Of a stretch of DNA of 64,000 nucleotides, positions 12,430-20,528 are shown piece after piece. Position numbers and translations under genes: made by a program. The notes below the pieces were generated by a model. It worked only from the letters and a program-made list of their open reading frames with translations. It was not told the origin of the DNA and did not search any database. The stretch lies in contig NZ_CP151792.1 of NCBI RefSeq assembly GCF_038446525.1, positions 124,001 to 188,000 of the forward strand, written 5' to 3'. The stretch is from Methanolobus sp. ZRKC5. GTDB lineage: Archaea; Halobacteriota; Methanosarcinia; Methanosarcinales; Methanosarcinaceae. The stretch's first letter is position 1. Each line of letters opens with the position of its first letter.

Positions 12430-13139
12430 GATTGGAAGTACTGGAATGAGTTGACTAAGGGACTATACCTGAAGATTATGATTTTTGTGTTAGGGGAGAT
12501 TAGTATAAGAGAGCAACAGAAGCAGGAGACAAGGTTAATGTCATGCTCAATTATGGTTATGCTCTGCTTGAGGCTGAATGCTTAAGAGCCATCAATGCTG
12601 TTGGTATGGATGTTCATGTAGGCTTTTTGCATGAGATGGCATCAGGTAAGAACAGTTTAGCTTATGATCTGCAAGAGCCTTTTAGATTCCTTGTTGATCT
12701 TACGGTTATCAGTCTTATTGAGTCTAAGAAGATGGATGATAAGGACTTTATCAGGACTGAGAGCTATTCACTCAGGTTGAAGCCTTCAGGAGCTAAGAAG
12801 GTTACTGAGGAGTTCAATAACTGGATGAATAAGAAGGTAGCTTACAAAAAACAATCTGTTATGTGGAGTTATGCTCTGTTATTGAAGACTAGGGAGCTTG
12901 ATCAGTATCTTGTTGGCAAGAGAAAGACTCTTGATTTCAGTAAGCCTGTTTATAGTGTTGAGAGGCATGATTCAGAAGAGATTAGACAGAAGATACTAAG
13001 TATTTCTTACTCAGACTGGAAGAAGATGGGATTCTCAAAAGGTACACTCCACTACATGAAGAAAAATGCTGAAGCGGATAAGCAATTTACCTTAAACTCT
13101 CACGTTAGGGAAAGATTAGAGATGTGGGGAGGATGTTGA
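12430..13139 (+). pseudogene. cas1: cas1 remnant (C-terminal half, with frameshift and stop)
   Basis: The long frame from ATG 12543 reads MLNYGYALLEAECLRAINA, GFLHEMASGKNSLAYDLQEP and so on to ERLEMWGGC and a stop. This is the Cas1 integrase C-terminal domain with the Glu (LLEAE), His (FLHE) and acidic (QEPF) active-site residues kept. Upstream, the same frame continues (YKRATEAGDKVNV) but is cut by TAG at 12501. Before that, CVRGD and PEDYDF are in frame, and DWKYWNELTKGL is in another frame, so there is also a frameshift near 12467. The N-terminal domain is missing, no cas2 follows, and no CRISPR repeats are visible. It is a dead relic. Confidence 0.9.
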
Positions 13140-13222
13140 CAAATTGAATAAAATTATATGTTGTATAAACACATCAAAGATTTGATTAATTTTAAACGTT
13201 TTTATTGAACAAGGTGGCTAGA

Positions 13223-13381
13223 ATGCAACAAAATAATGTGCAAAAGATAGTGAAAATATTGCAAAAACATTCATTCACCATTGGTATTTTATTTGTACTT
13301 GGTGGGATATTTCTACTTTACCATGAAGTAATTACAGAAGCCTACCATTTTAGCTATACTAAAATGATAATTTATATGTAA
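13223..13381 (+). pseudogene. Small membrane-protein gene truncated by IS66 copy A
   Basis: The frame starts at ATG 13223 behind a strong GGTGG site and encodes MQQNNVQKIVKILQKHSFT, then a hydrophobic segment (IGILFVLGGIFLLYHE) and YHFSYTKMIIY. It ends at ATG-TAA formed by the first bases of the IS66 element. The rest is not recognisable beyond the element, which lacks a matching target duplication here, so flanking DNA has probably been lost. Confidence 0.6.
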
Positions 13382-14999
13382 CTATTCAGCCTAGCTCACT
13401 TCCACCAAGCTGATTTCTTCATCCACGATCAATTCTGCAACTTTGGAACAAATGAATTGCCATAAAATATTGCACTAATTGCATCGATAACAGATTCAGA
13501 ATTCTTATTAACAGTAGACACGTATCCTCTTATACGGCAGAAATTTTTTGCACCCTGTTTACTGCGGAAAGTACCTGATATCTTCTGCTGTACTTTCGTC
13601 ATTCTGATATCTCTTTCAGCCTGATTGTTATCAAACGGAACGTTTTGGTCGTACATAAATCGCAAGATATCCTCTTTATGGCCAATAAACCTATCCAGCA
13701 AATTCTTTACCGTGGTCTGCTTCTTACGTCCTCGTTTTTTAGACCGCACATTTGATTCCGGATCAGGAGGATTTTCATTCACTCCTAAACAAGTTATGTG
13801 ATCATAATCCTCACTGAACCTTTGAATTAGCTCAGTATCTAAAAGATCATTATCAACATGATGTTTAATGCATATCAAGAGATCACTCATTATCTTTGTC
13901 CACTGTTGATCACTGTTTTCGGAAGCTCCAGTTAACTCTCGTAATAAATGTGCATTACATAATGAATGTTGACATTCATATTTGTTGTACGGTTTCCAAA
14001 AATCATGTGTTGCAACACCAGTGTAACCTGGTAATATGCCCATAGCATCCATTGCTTCTGAGCCCCTTTTGCGATGTGCAAAATAATAGGTCAGTTTGTC
14101 TGTACCTGCCACATGAAGCCAATTACGAACTGCATTTATTCTCATTCCTGTTTCATCCAGATTGATGACAGGAGATTCTTTCAGGAGATGTTTCACTGTA
14201 TTTTCAAAAGCTCCAAGCTTCTCAAAACAACTACGTTCCGTGTTCACCAAAGTAGCAGGACTTATCTTGCATCCCAAAATATCAGAGAACAACTTGGTAA
14301 CACGCTGATAAGGAAGTAATTGGTAAGTGTGCAAATAAACTGCAAATGACTTAACTCGATGACCGTATTGAGTCGGCTGAGTTACACCATCTGGAAAAAG
14401 AGCTTTGTTTACATGAGAACATTTGGGACATGTTTTAATCTCGCAACGATGTTCAATGCAATTGATAGTTATAGGAGGAATGTCAAAGACCTGTCTTCTT
14501 TCATAGTCAGAGGGAACAGAAGCTAACGATCTCCCACAATTGACGCATTGATTAACAGGATGAACAATAACTTCATCCGGATCATCATTTATTCTTAATG
14601 TAGTACCAGGATGACCGTTTTGACCACCTACATGCTTATTGGTCTTTTTTCTTTGACTTTTAAGGGTTGGTTTATTCCGTGCATAAGAATCAGTAGAAGG
14701 TGGTTTGCTACTGTTGCGACTATTCTTTTCAAGCATTTCTTCCAAATGCCTGACACGCTCTTCAAGTTGTGCAATTTGGAGAGATTGATGTTCAATTATC
14801 CCAAGTAATCGAGTTACAAGTTCTACTACTGCTTCTGGACCAGCTTCATAAACTGCAAGTATTTCTTCGCGGTCTATACAAATCCCCTCAGATTGATAGA
14901 CGTTTTTTATGATATTTTACTGAATATTTTTTAACACATAGAATGAAGCCATAGTATATTGTTTTTTGCATCATTAAAACAGTCAGGCTGAATAGTTAC
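13378..14999 (-). mobile_element. IS66-family insertion sequence, copy A
   Basis: About 1622 bp with perfect 15-bp ends GTAACTATTCAGCCT / AGGCTGAATAGTTAC, identical to those of the six 194-bp MITEs. It carries a single transposase (tnpC type) without tnpA or tnpB, as in the ISBst12 subgroup. It is nearly identical to copy B at 43816. Unlike copy B, the 8 bases on each side (atttatat and gtaatata) do not match, suggesting later recombination or a deletion at one end. Confidence 0.93.
13429..14745 (-). CDS. IS66-family transposase (TnpC type)
   Basis: From the TTG at 14745 the protein is 438 aa: NSSKPPSTDSYARNK linker, zinc-finger region (CVNCGRSL, CPKCSHVNK), YGHRVKSFAVYLHTYQLLPY, catalytic LDETGMR, CNAHLLREL and DNNQAERDIRM, ending in the IS66 C-terminal segment. 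The frame stays open for 44 more codons upstream and encodes DREEILAVYEAGPEAVVEL and a coiled segment, the normal IS66 N terminus, so the listed TTG is almost certainly internal. No ATG, GTG or TTG begins that extension; an ATA at 14877, 6 nt after GAGGGG, fits best and gives 482 aa. It differs from copy B at three residues. Confidence 0.93.
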   Translation of the reverse strand: MEEMLEKNSRNSSKPPSTDSYARNKPTLKSQRKKTNKHVGGQNGHPGTTLRINDDPDEVIVHPVNQCVNCGRSLASVPSDYERRQVFDIPPITINCIEHRCEIKTCPKCSHVNKALFPDGVTQPTQYGHRVKSFAVYLHTYQLLPYQRVTKLFSDILGCKISPATLVNTERSCFEKLGAFENTVKHLLKESPVINLDETGMRINAVRNWLHVAGTDKLTYYFAHRKRGSEAMDAMGILPGYTGVATHDFWKPYNKYECQHSLCNAHLLRELTGASENSDQQWTKIMSDLLICIKHHVDNDLLDTELIQRFSEDYDHITCLGVNENPPDPESNVRSKKRGRKKQTTVKNLLDRFIGHKEDILRFMYDQNVPFDNNQAERDIRMTKVQQKISGTFRSKQGAKNFCRIRGYVSTVNKNSESVIDAISAIFYGNSFVPKLQN

Positions 15000-17060: not shown

Positions 17061-17687
17061 TTGTTAAAATTGGTTTTATCCATAGTGATCCTTGTTCTAT
17101 GCCTTGTAGGATTTGCAGCTATTCATAGCCTTTTGGCGAGCTTGCCAGTTAAACGTTTCATCAGAGGAGCCTTAGGGTCCAAAGCAGACGATTTGTATAT
17201 GCCGGTATACAATCTTATCGCAGTGATAACTCTAATACCACTTGTCTATCTGCTCTATAAGAACCCAGGCCCGTTCTTATACATCGTCCCTTCTCCCTGG
17301 CGGTGGTTCATGGTAGGTGGACAGGTGATAGCTGCTATTGTTGGTCCAAGGGCTTTGCGGGATGCACCCCAAAGATTCAGGCTACGTGGGCAGTTATCCA
17401 CACCAAATACCCCTGATGCAGCCCCTCTGGATATCCGGGGTGTTTACCGATGGATAAGGGATCCTTTCCTTTTCTCCGGACTGGTGATAATGGTGCTTAC
17501 TCCTTTTATGACCGTCAATCTGCTCATCATGTACCTTCTGACAACCATATATCTGGTTATGGGATCCATGCACTGGGAAAGTAGGCTGGTGGCACAGTTT
17601 GGTGATGAATTCCGAGAGTATCAGAAAGAGGTTCACAGGATTATTCCACGCTTGAAAGGGTATAAGAAAAGCAGCAGAAAGTTATGA
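17061..17687 (+). CDS. NnrU / isoprenylcysteine methyltransferase-like membrane protein
   Basis: About 208 aa with five to six hydrophobic helices. The mid and C-terminal parts carry the methyltransferase-like motifs LDIRGVYRWIRDPFLFSGL and HWESRLVAQFGDEFREYQKEV, which in PEMT/ICMT-type enzymes bind S-adenosylmethionine (RHP-like motif, here RDP). NnrU and methanethiol methyltransferase relatives share the N-terminal AAIHSLLAS motif. Substrate unknown. The start is uncertain: TTG 17061 is only 2 bases after GGAG, so TTG 17073 (MVLSIVILV) is at least as likely. Confidence 0.75.
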   Translation: MLKLVLSIVILVLCLVGFAAIHSLLASLPVKRFIRGALGSKADDLYMPVYNLIAVITLIPLVYLLYKNPGPFLYIVPSPWRWFMVGGQVIAAIVGPRALRDAPQRFRLRGQLSTPNTPDAAPLDIRGVYRWIRDPFLFSGLVIMVLTPFMTVNLLIMYLLTTIYLVMGSMHWESRLVAQFGDEFREYQKEVHRIIPRLKGYKKSSRKL

Positions 17688-17791
17688 TATGCTTTCAATA
17701 TCCACTTTCCAGACAATCAAAAGTAGCTTTCGATAACACATTTTTTGCCAAAAAATATATACTGTTTATGTCTTATTAACAGACGATAGAC

Positions 17792-18079
17792 ATGATTCAT
17801 GAAGAAAGTACTAAACTGTCTGAAAAGACTTTAAATCTTAAAAGAGCAATCGATTCTCTAAGAGAAGAGCTGGAAGCTGTAGACTGGTACAACCAGAGAG
17901 CAGATGCCTGCACCGATGAGAACCTGAAGAAGATCTTGATCCACAATGCAAATGAAGAGAAAGAACATGCAGCCATGCTTATAGAATGGCTCAGACAGAA
18001 TGATGAGAATTTCGCCAAAGAACTTAAAGAATACCTTTTCAGCACAGAAAAAGATATAGCAAGCCTTGAAGAAGGCTAA
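17792..18079 (+). CDS. Encapsulated-ferritin-like protein (EncFtn family), without shell gene
   Basis: The 95-aa two-helix protein matches bacterial EncFtn through its core: EELEAVDWYNQRADACTDENL and HNANEEKEHAAMLIEWLRQND. The iron ligands of the ferroxidase site correspond to E26, E56 and H59, with W32 and Y33 also kept. EncFtn assembles as a ring of dimers whose ferroxidase centre forms between subunits, and it normally works inside an encapsulin shell. Here the protein ends in EKDIASLEEG with no C-terminal encapsulation peptide, and no encapsulin gene is adjacent or elsewhere in the window. A TATA-like AAAATATATA precedes the gene by about 35 bp. Confidence 0.88.
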   Translation: MIHEESTKLSEKTLNLKRAIDSLREELEAVDWYNQRADACTDENLKKILIHNANEEKEHAAMLIEWLRQNDENFAKELKEYLFSTEKDIASLEEG

Positions 18080-18226: not shown

Positions 18227-18886
18227 ATGTCAGTCACTCAAAATATAAAGACCATCATCAAAGAACTTGAAGGAATAAAACTTGTCTGTGTCACCAAGAC
18301 AATCGACCCTGAGAGGATAAACGAATCCATCAGAGCCGGAGCCATTATTATTGGAGAAAACAGGGTTCAGGAGTTCGAAGAAAAGTATGAAGAGCTCCTG
18401 CCATGTGAAAGGCATCTTATAGGACATTTGCAGACAAACAAGGTTAAAAAAGCGGTTCAATTCTTTGATGTTATCCAGTCGGTCGATTCCTTAAAGTTGA
18501 TACAGGATATTGATAGGAAAGCCAAAACTATTGACAAGATGCAGAAAGTATTCCTCCAGGTCAACATAGGTAACGAGCCACAGAAGTACGGATTTGGCTT
18601 GGATGAAATTGAACAGGTTATAAGTGAGATTAGGTTACTGAAAAATGTCCAAGTGGAAGGACTTATGTGCATACCACCTTTTGTATCTCCCGAGGAAACG
18701 CGTTCATATTTCAGGAGAATGAAAGTACTTTTTGATGAGTTGAAACAGGAAAACTCAAGTAATAGTGACAATATCGATTTCCAAGAACTATCAATGGGAA
18801 TGTCCGGTGACTACAGGGTTGCTATTGAGGAAGGGGCTACCATGGTGCGTGTTGGTTCTGCGATATTTGGGGATAGGAAATACTGA
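18227..18886 (+). CDS. YggS-family pyridoxal-phosphate homeostasis protein
   Basis: The 219-aa protein has the PLP-binding single-domain TIM-barrel pattern: LVCVTKT with the PLP lysine K24, IGENRVQEFEEKYE, RHLIGHLQTNKVKKAV, SVDSLKLI, FLQVNIGNEPQKYGF, GLMCIPP, and the phosphate-binding end LSMGMSGDYRVAIEEGATMVRVGSAIFG. Family members bind PLP, have no known enzymatic reaction and keep vitamin B6 and amino-acid pools balanced. It is slightly shorter than the usual 225-235 aa. It follows the ferritin-like gene by 147 bp on the same strand. Confidence 0.93.
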   Translation: MSVTQNIKTIIKELEGIKLVCVTKTIDPERINESIRAGAIIIGENRVQEFEEKYEELLPCERHLIGHLQTNKVKKAVQFFDVIQSVDSLKLIQDIDRKAKTIDKMQKVFLQVNIGNEPQKYGFGLDEIEQVISEIRLLKNVQVEGLMCIPPFVSPEETRSYFRRMKVLFDELKQENSSNSDNIDFQELSMGMSGDYRVAIEEGATMVRVGSAIFGDRKY

Positions 18887-19583: not shown

Positions 19584-20528
19584 CTAGATTATTCCTTTGG
19601 TTTTTAGTGTCCTCAATTGATGCAGATTAAAACAAAAAGCTGTCATCAACATTTTTGCATTCACTCTTTCTACAGTTGTAACAAGAACCTTTCTGGTTTT
19701 AAATATTTCTTTTGTCACTGCATACACTCTTTCGCAAGGGACTCTTTTCACACTTATTCTTTCATTTCTGAGGATATCCATTATTCCTAAAGGATGTCCT
19801 CTTACAGCTCGTTGCATTGTTGCTGCAAAACCTTTTGCTATTGCTCCAAAATATCCTTTATCTCTATACACCACTTCACCCTTTTCAGACAGATCAACCT
19901 GTGAATCGTGAAGTGATGCAGTTGTTGTCTCAAATCTTCTGATTAGTTCATAATCCTTATCAATAATTGTATGAAGTTTGTATCCAAAGTGAGATTTACC
20001 ATTTTTCTTAGTCCAGGTTCCATCTTTGCTTCTTCTTGTTTTCGCATCTTTTCCTCTGAGTACATCTGCTTTTGCATGTCCTGGATCTGAGTGAATAAAA
20101 GTTGCATCCTGGATCATTCCTTTTTTAATCTTCAAACCAAGAGCATCAAGCTGATTCTGCATTTCATCCCACACCGCTTTTTCTTTACCATTGTCGATAA
20201 TTCTCTTCCTGAATGACCAGACAGTTGTACTGTCTGGTACATATTCAGGAAATCCCAGGAATTTCCTAAAGGATATCCTGTCAATACACTGCTTTTCAAG
20301 CTCAGCATCAGAAAGACCATGCCATTGTTGCAGAACAAGCATCTTGAACATTACAATAACATCAGCTTCAGGCCGTCCGCCTGAAGCTGTTCTGTTTATG
20401 TACATTGACTCCAGAATAGGGCGAAAAGGCTTCCAATCTACTAAATATTCAATTTCAGCAAGCTTATCTCCGACAGATTGGAGACGCTTATATTCTTCAT
20501 TTAAGGCAAAATCAGTAAAAGAATCCAT
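19584..20528 (-). CDS. IS5-family transposase (copy A)
   Basis: 314 aa with an N-terminal helical domain (DUF772-type: LVDWKPFRPILESMYINR, SGGRPEADVIVMFKMLVLQ) and a DDE catalytic domain. The Asp lies in IQDATFIHSDPGHAK, the second in EVVYRDKGYFG, and the Glu in the RNERISVKRVPCERVYAVTKEIF region. It is identical to copies B and C except for I instead of V as the penultimate residue. It should be active. Confidence 0.96.
   Translation of the reverse strand: MDSFTDFALNEEYKRLQSVGDKLAEIEYLVDWKPFRPILESMYINRTASGGRPEADVIVMFKMLVLQQWHGLSDAELEKQCIDRISFRKFLGFPEYVPDSTTVWSFRKRIIDNGKEKAVWDEMQNQLDALGLKIKKGMIQDATFIHSDPGHAKADVLRGKDAKTRRSKDGTWTKKNGKSHFGYKLHTIIDKDYELIRRFETTTASLHDSQVDLSEKGEVVYRDKGYFGAIAKGFAATMQRAVRGHPLGIMDILRNERISVKRVPCERVYAVTKEIFKTRKVLVTTVERVNAKMLMTAFCFNLHQLRTLKTKGII

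What the first reader, a model, noticed from the sequence alone, without database searches (positions are those of the whole stretch)
17792..18079. EncFtn-type ferritin without encapsulin shell or targeting peptide
The iron-site residues (E26, E56, H59) and the WY pair are all present, but the protein ends 10-15 residues earlier than shell-targeted EncFtn proteins. No shell gene lies within the window. It may be a free-standing ferroxidase in a methanogen, or use a distant shell. The neighbour is a YggS gene rather than iron genes.
Basis: partly seen in the sequence, partly recalled or inferred. Interest (0 to 1): 0.6.

Follow-up and report, generated by a model that had tools for sequence, protein, structure and literature searches.

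The report
Shell-less EncFtn ferritin in a methanogen
A methanogen (genus Methanolobus by kinship) carries a small iron-oxidising ferritin of a type usually locked inside a protein shell, but it has neither the shell nor the shell address tag; it is a well-conserved member of a known, widespread and little-studied short class.

Summary
Window 17792-18079 encodes a 95-aa EncFtn (PF22277, 130.7 bits) with every ferroxidase residue, ending 12 residues after the core. The short end is conserved: all 22 full-length orthologues in the order end 11-16 residues after the core. The closed genome has no family-1 or family-2 encapsulin; its only match is a sub-cut-off capsid protein (58 vs 100 bits) near a Mu-F-like phage head gene. 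None of 186 genomes of the order passes the encapsulin cut-off, yet the same search finds 25 encapsulins elsewhere in the phylum. In a bacterial control order all 12 shells have a tailed EncFtn (..GSLK) beside them, while 78 further genomes carry EncFtn and no shell. Where both forms share a genome (11 cases), only the tailed one adjoins the shell. Tail length is bimodal (at most 18 or at least 35) and needs one change on the tree. This is the 's-FLP' class known from Nitrosomonas NE0167 (PDB 3k6c), whose encapsulation was left open (PMC11202242). Most likely it is a free decameric ferroxidase that does not store iron. Ordinary as a family member; modestly interesting as genomic evidence that this class works without a shell.

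The parts
17792..18079 (+). EncFtn, short class (s-FLP), 95 aa; diiron residues E26 (17867-17869), E56 (17957-17959), H59 (17966-17968); W32-Y33 (17885-17890)
   Evidence: PF22277 130.7 bits; 3k6c 7e-29; alignment with solved EncFtns; best fold matches are EncFtn entries
18041..18076 (+). C-terminal end after the EncFtn core, STEKDIASLEEG, 12 residues, no targeting peptide (no GSL/GSI motif)
   Evidence: conserved end in methanogen orthologues; tailed forms have 35-65 residues with GS[LI]
17747..17762 (+). putative own archaeal promoter: BRE/TATA-like GCCAAAAAATATATAC, TATATA at -36 from the ATG
   Evidence: conserved box at about the same distance upstream of nearly all orthologues although more distal sequence differs
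17061..17687 (+). upstream membrane protein, weakly NnrU / MddA / isoprenylcysteine methyltransferase-like; adjacent in a subset of the genus; no demonstrated link
   Evidence: below-cut-off family matches; neighbour cluster 4 in 9 loci
18227..18886 (+). YggS-family PLP-binding protein, downstream neighbour; adjacency not conserved
   Evidence: TIGR00044 170.7 bits; several kb away in relatives

Best explanation
It is a free-standing EncFtn of the short class (s-FLP). Two long helices of neighbouring subunits pair to make a diiron site, and the protein most likely assembles as the decamer seen for NE0167 (3k6c). It oxidises Fe(II) in the cytoplasm, probably with traces of O2 or peroxide, without a shell and so without storing iron itself; the product would pass to the cell's ordinary ferritin or precipitate. 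Shown: shell-free genome, missing targeting peptide, EncFtn core with complete diiron site. Inferred: decamer, ferroxidase reaction, oxidant, physiological role.
For: Complete metal-site set and 58-63% identity to structurally solved EncFtns. No encapsulin over cut-off in its closed genome or in any of 186 genomes of the order, with the same search positive for 25 genomes of the phylum. Conserved short end. In the bacterial control order 12 of 12 shells adjoin a tailed EncFtn, and short forms live in shell-less genomes. Where both coexist, only the tailed one is next to the shell. NE0167 of the same class is a decamer in its crystal (PMC11202242). A separate classical ferritin is encoded in the genome.
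Against: No biochemistry on any s-FLP was found in the held papers; characterised EncFtns oxidise iron better inside a shell and do not keep it soluble alone (PMC11202242), so the benefit of a free form is unclear. The host is presumably a strict anaerobe, so the oxidant is unclear. A shell too divergent for the models cannot be fully excluded.
Confidence: 0.74

Rival explanations
1. It keeps the diiron site but acts mainly as a peroxide/oxygen scavenger (rubrerythrin-like, with an electron donor) or as an iron or metal carrier, not as a ferroxidase that feeds storage.
For: The host is presumably an anaerobe with little O2 (general knowledge of methanogens); the genome already has a classical ferritin; weak but above-cut-off Rubrerythrin match, 23.7 vs 22.8 bits.
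Against: The EncFtn site residues are fully kept, including those at the Rru E31/E34 entry positions; no electron-donor gene is consistently linked.
Confidence: 0.17
2. It is packaged in a distant or divergent shell, for example the capsid-like protein at G000:C1:1539058-1539879, using an undefined C-terminal signal.
For: That protein matches the encapsulin models over most of their length (58 bits NF041155, 53 bits PF04454); PMC11202242 leaves open an undefined signal in the short C-terminus.
Against: Below the curated cut-off of 100; lies near a Phage_Mu_F minor head gene; absent from 12 of 23 EncFtn-bearing genomes and present in 6 without EncFtn; the EncFtn end carries no GSL motif, whereas true shells of the phylum have their own ..IGSLK/R-tailed cargo.
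Confidence: 0.06
3. Recently truncated, decaying pseudogene of a tailed EncFtn.
For: It lacks the tail; the region is rich in insertion sequences.
Against: The same short end is conserved across three genera, with metal residues kept; the short state is general in the wider clade; one decayed copy is seen elsewhere (G137, in-frame TAG) but not here.
Confidence: 0.02

Closest known systems
s-FLP class, type NE0167 of Nitrosomonas europaea (PDB 3k6c; described in PMC11202242)
   Same: 95 aa, EncFtn core, full diiron site apart from W32, no targeting peptide; about 60% identity
   Different: archaeal host (the review calls the class predominantly bacterial); W32 instead of Leu; the shell-less status of the host was tested here at genome level
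FLP-TP / EncFtn cargo of Rhodospirillum rubrum (Rru_A0973, 5da5) and Haliangium ochraceum (5n5f)
   Same: same fold and iron-site residues, 52-59% identity
   Different: those carry a long tail with targeting peptide and sit with a family-1 encapsulin; neither is present here
Pyrococcus furiosus EncFtn-encapsulin fusion (5n5e, 2e0z)
   Same: archaeal EncFtn domain, weakly similar
   Different: [quoted passage not shown] here no shell domain follows

Membership tests
EncFtn-like (PF22277) | profile score over the curated cut-off | tested here: met
   130.7 bits vs 27
EncFtn-like (PF22277) | diiron residues E, E, H and Tyr (Rru E32, E62, H65, Y39) | tested here: met
   E26, E56, H59, Y33 aligned and invariant
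EncFtn-like (PF22277) | ferroxidase activity | not testable with these tools
   needs purified protein
s-FLP class (PMC11202242) | short C-terminus without an apparent targeting peptide | tested here: met
   12 residues after the core, no GSL/GSI motif
s-FLP class (PMC11202242) | closest sequence kinship to NE0167 and other short forms rather than tailed forms | tested here: met
   3k6c is the best PDB sequence hit; placed among short forms, tailed forms on a separate branch 93/88
s-FLP class (PMC11202242) | decameric ring assembly | not testable with these tools
   only a monomer was modelled
Family-1 encapsulin cargo (FLP-TP) | C-terminal targeting peptide | tested here: not met
Family-1 encapsulin cargo (FLP-TP) | encapsulin shell gene adjacent or in the genome | tested here: not met
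   no match over cut-off in the closed genome
TIGR04535 encapsulin-associated ferritin-like protein | score over the curated cut-off | tested here: not met
   119.9 vs 125 bits, match ends at profile position 92 of 114
Encapsulin (candidate shell at G000:C1:1539058-1539879) | NF041155 score over the curated cut-off | tested here: not met
   58 vs 100 bits, with a phage head gene nearby

The most novel reading that the evidence does not exclude
Short EncFtns are a large, old, truly shell-free ferroxidase lineage that passed between bacteria, CPR/DPANN and methylotrophic methanogens, and encapsulated EncFtn is an offshoot that gained tail and shell. The tree needs only one tail change, but its root and direction are not secured.
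Probability: 0.33. Interest if true: 0.55.

Novelty: new member of a known kind. Interest (0 to 1): 0.36.

Why it matters
EncFtn is treated as a cargo enzyme whose shell stores the iron it oxidises. A large short class kept intact in shell-less genomes, closed ones included, means EncFtn can do something useful without storage. It makes the question left open in PMC11202242 (are s-FLPs encapsulated?) testable in an organism that has no recognisable shell at all.

Tried and rejected
The PF04454 hit at first looked like an encapsulin; rejected as capsid-like after the stricter model, its neighbours and its patchy distribution. Family-2 shell (PF19307): none. Functional linkage: synteny over 20 loci shows a Lon protease and a MarR regulator on the opposite strand and a membrane methyltransferase-like gene, but no iron genes; YggS adjacency is local to this insertion-sequence-rich region. 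The residue counts are partly forced by the search pattern and are not used as evidence. Paper searches for methanogen EncFtn or encapsulin found nothing relevant.

Full report
WHAT IS THERE. Window 17792-18079 (+) is a 95-codon ORF with an ATG start. It matches PF22277 EncFtn-like at 130.7 bits over residues 2-84 and TIGR04535 at 119.9 bits, just under that model's cut-off of 125; the match stops at profile position 92 of 114, where the tail would be. The closest solved relative is NE0167 of Nitrosomonas europaea (3k6c, 7e-29), followed by Rhodospirillum and Haliangium EncFtn. All residues of the EncFtn diiron site and entry site align; W32 is the one that varies, being Leu in NE0167. A single-sequence AlphaFold2 model (mean pLDDT 84) finds EncFtn entries, 3k6c among them, as its best structural matches. 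The rmsd is high (4.5-7.1 A), so this supports the fold family but says nothing about assembly.

WHOSE GENOME. The window lies in a closed 3.05-Mb genome, 99.99% complete. A genome of the same genus (G117) has a contig of the same length (1,112,953) as Methanolobus profundi (L063), so the genus is inferred to be Methanolobus.

IS THE SHORT END REAL? EncFtn of this kind occurs in 23 of 186 genomes of the order, in three genera of one family. The 22 full-length copies all end 11-16 residues after the core, mostly at DIASLEE or DIASLED; the 23rd has an in-frame TAG. A BRE/TATA-like box stands about 36-40 nt before the ATG in nearly all copies although more distal upstream sequence differs. This suggests, but does not prove, a gene with its own promoter.

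IS THERE A SHELL? The only encapsulin-like match in the genome is a 288-aa capsid protein at C1:1539058-1539879: 58 bits with NF041155 (cut-off 100), 53 bits with PF04454. A Phage_Mu_F minor head gene lies about 2.6 kb away. No SrpI-like family-2 shell is present. Across the order, 0 of 186 genomes pass the cut-off; 12 of the 23 EncFtn-bearing genomes have no match at all, while 6 genomes have the capsid-like match without EncFtn. The search works: among 393 genomes of the phylum it finds 25 encapsulins at 143-236 bits, none in the window's family, and 10 of 12 inspected have a ferritin-like cargo of another subfamily beside them, tailed with ..IGSLK or ..IGSLR.

DOES THE TAIL GO WITH THE SHELL? 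A collection scan gave 80 relatives in proteobacteria, CPR, DPANN and other phyla; nearly all are short. This set is biased, because the query is short. Fifty of these genomes were searched for a shell: both with a tailed locus have one; of 48 with a short locus only one passes the cut-off (L114), and that genome holds a second, tailed EncFtn beside the shell. As a less biased test I took 146 genomes of the order of Thiohalocapsa: 12 shells in 11 genomes, each with a tailed EncFtn immediately adjacent; 89 genomes with EncFtn, hence 78 with EncFtn and no shell over the cut-off. Nine of the 11 shell genomes also hold a separate short copy away from the shell, as do two genomes of the other set. 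The copies fetched from shell-less genomes are short, apart from two damaged ones: L203, a decayed tailed copy, and L204, truncated. Tail lengths are bimodal, at most 18 or at least 35, and 14 of 14 long tails carry GS[LI].

TREE. On 99 rows the tailed forms are one side of one branch (93/88), tail state needs a single change, and the methanogen copies form one group (93/88) nested near CPR and DPANN copies, among bacterial short forms. Only 90 columns were usable, the bootstrap had not settled and the outgroup is distant, so the direction of the tail change is open. Transfer between these lineages is likely, but binning errors in the CPR/DPANN MAGs cannot be excluded (the Forterrea record is a complete genome).

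HOW IT LIKELY WORKS. Shown: EncFtn core with complete diiron site, no targeting peptide, no recognisable shell. Inferred from characterised homologues (PMC11202242, PMC8229669): decamer, Fe(II) oxidation at inter-subunit sites, no mineral storage by the decamer itself. The genome also has a classical ferritin (151 bits, C1:825448-825855), so a supplying or detoxifying role beside a real store is plausible. The oxidant in an anaerobe is unknown, which leaves room for a peroxide-scavenging reading.

WHAT IS KNOWN. PMC11202242 names the class s-FLP, says it is predominantly bacterial, was first called non-encapsulated, and that encapsulation is unresolved. The finding is therefore a new, archaeal member of a known kind; the added value is the genome-level link between tail and shell and the shell-free status of a whole lineage.

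Noticed in passing
L060:8409-8980 (-), about G000:C1:1983408-1983979; relatives L025-L031: A tandem pair of about 90-aa EncB-family-like ferritin-like proteins (PF22277 29-40 bits, Rubrerythrin 32-33 bits), present in many genomes of the family and without a GSLK-type tail in the copies read: possibly a second shell-free ferritin-like lineage.
   Followed up: partly
G000:C1:1539058-1539879 (L032, L151): Encapsulin-like capsid protein in a proviral-looking head module; similar sub-cut-off matches (37-86 bits) occur patchily in 17 genomes of the order.
   Followed up: partly
L064, L065, L066, L068, L069, L070: CPR and DPANN genomes (Moraniibacteriota, Gracilibacteria, Woesearchaeota, Nanoarchaeia, Forterrea) carry short EncFtns 70-79% identical to the methanogen one, closer than proteobacterial forms; transfer or mis-binning.
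   Followed up: partly
window 12543-14745 and 19584-20528: A C-terminal Cas1 fragment (12543-13139, +) next to an IS66 transposase (13429-14745, -), and a second DDE transposase (19584-20528, -) on the other side of the EncFtn gene: a locally rearranged region.
   Followed up: partly
L203 (G268:C56:6760-6996): Decayed tailed EncFtn in a bacterial genome that has no shell match and keeps an intact short EncFtn, as if tailed copy and shell had been lost together.
   Followed up: partly
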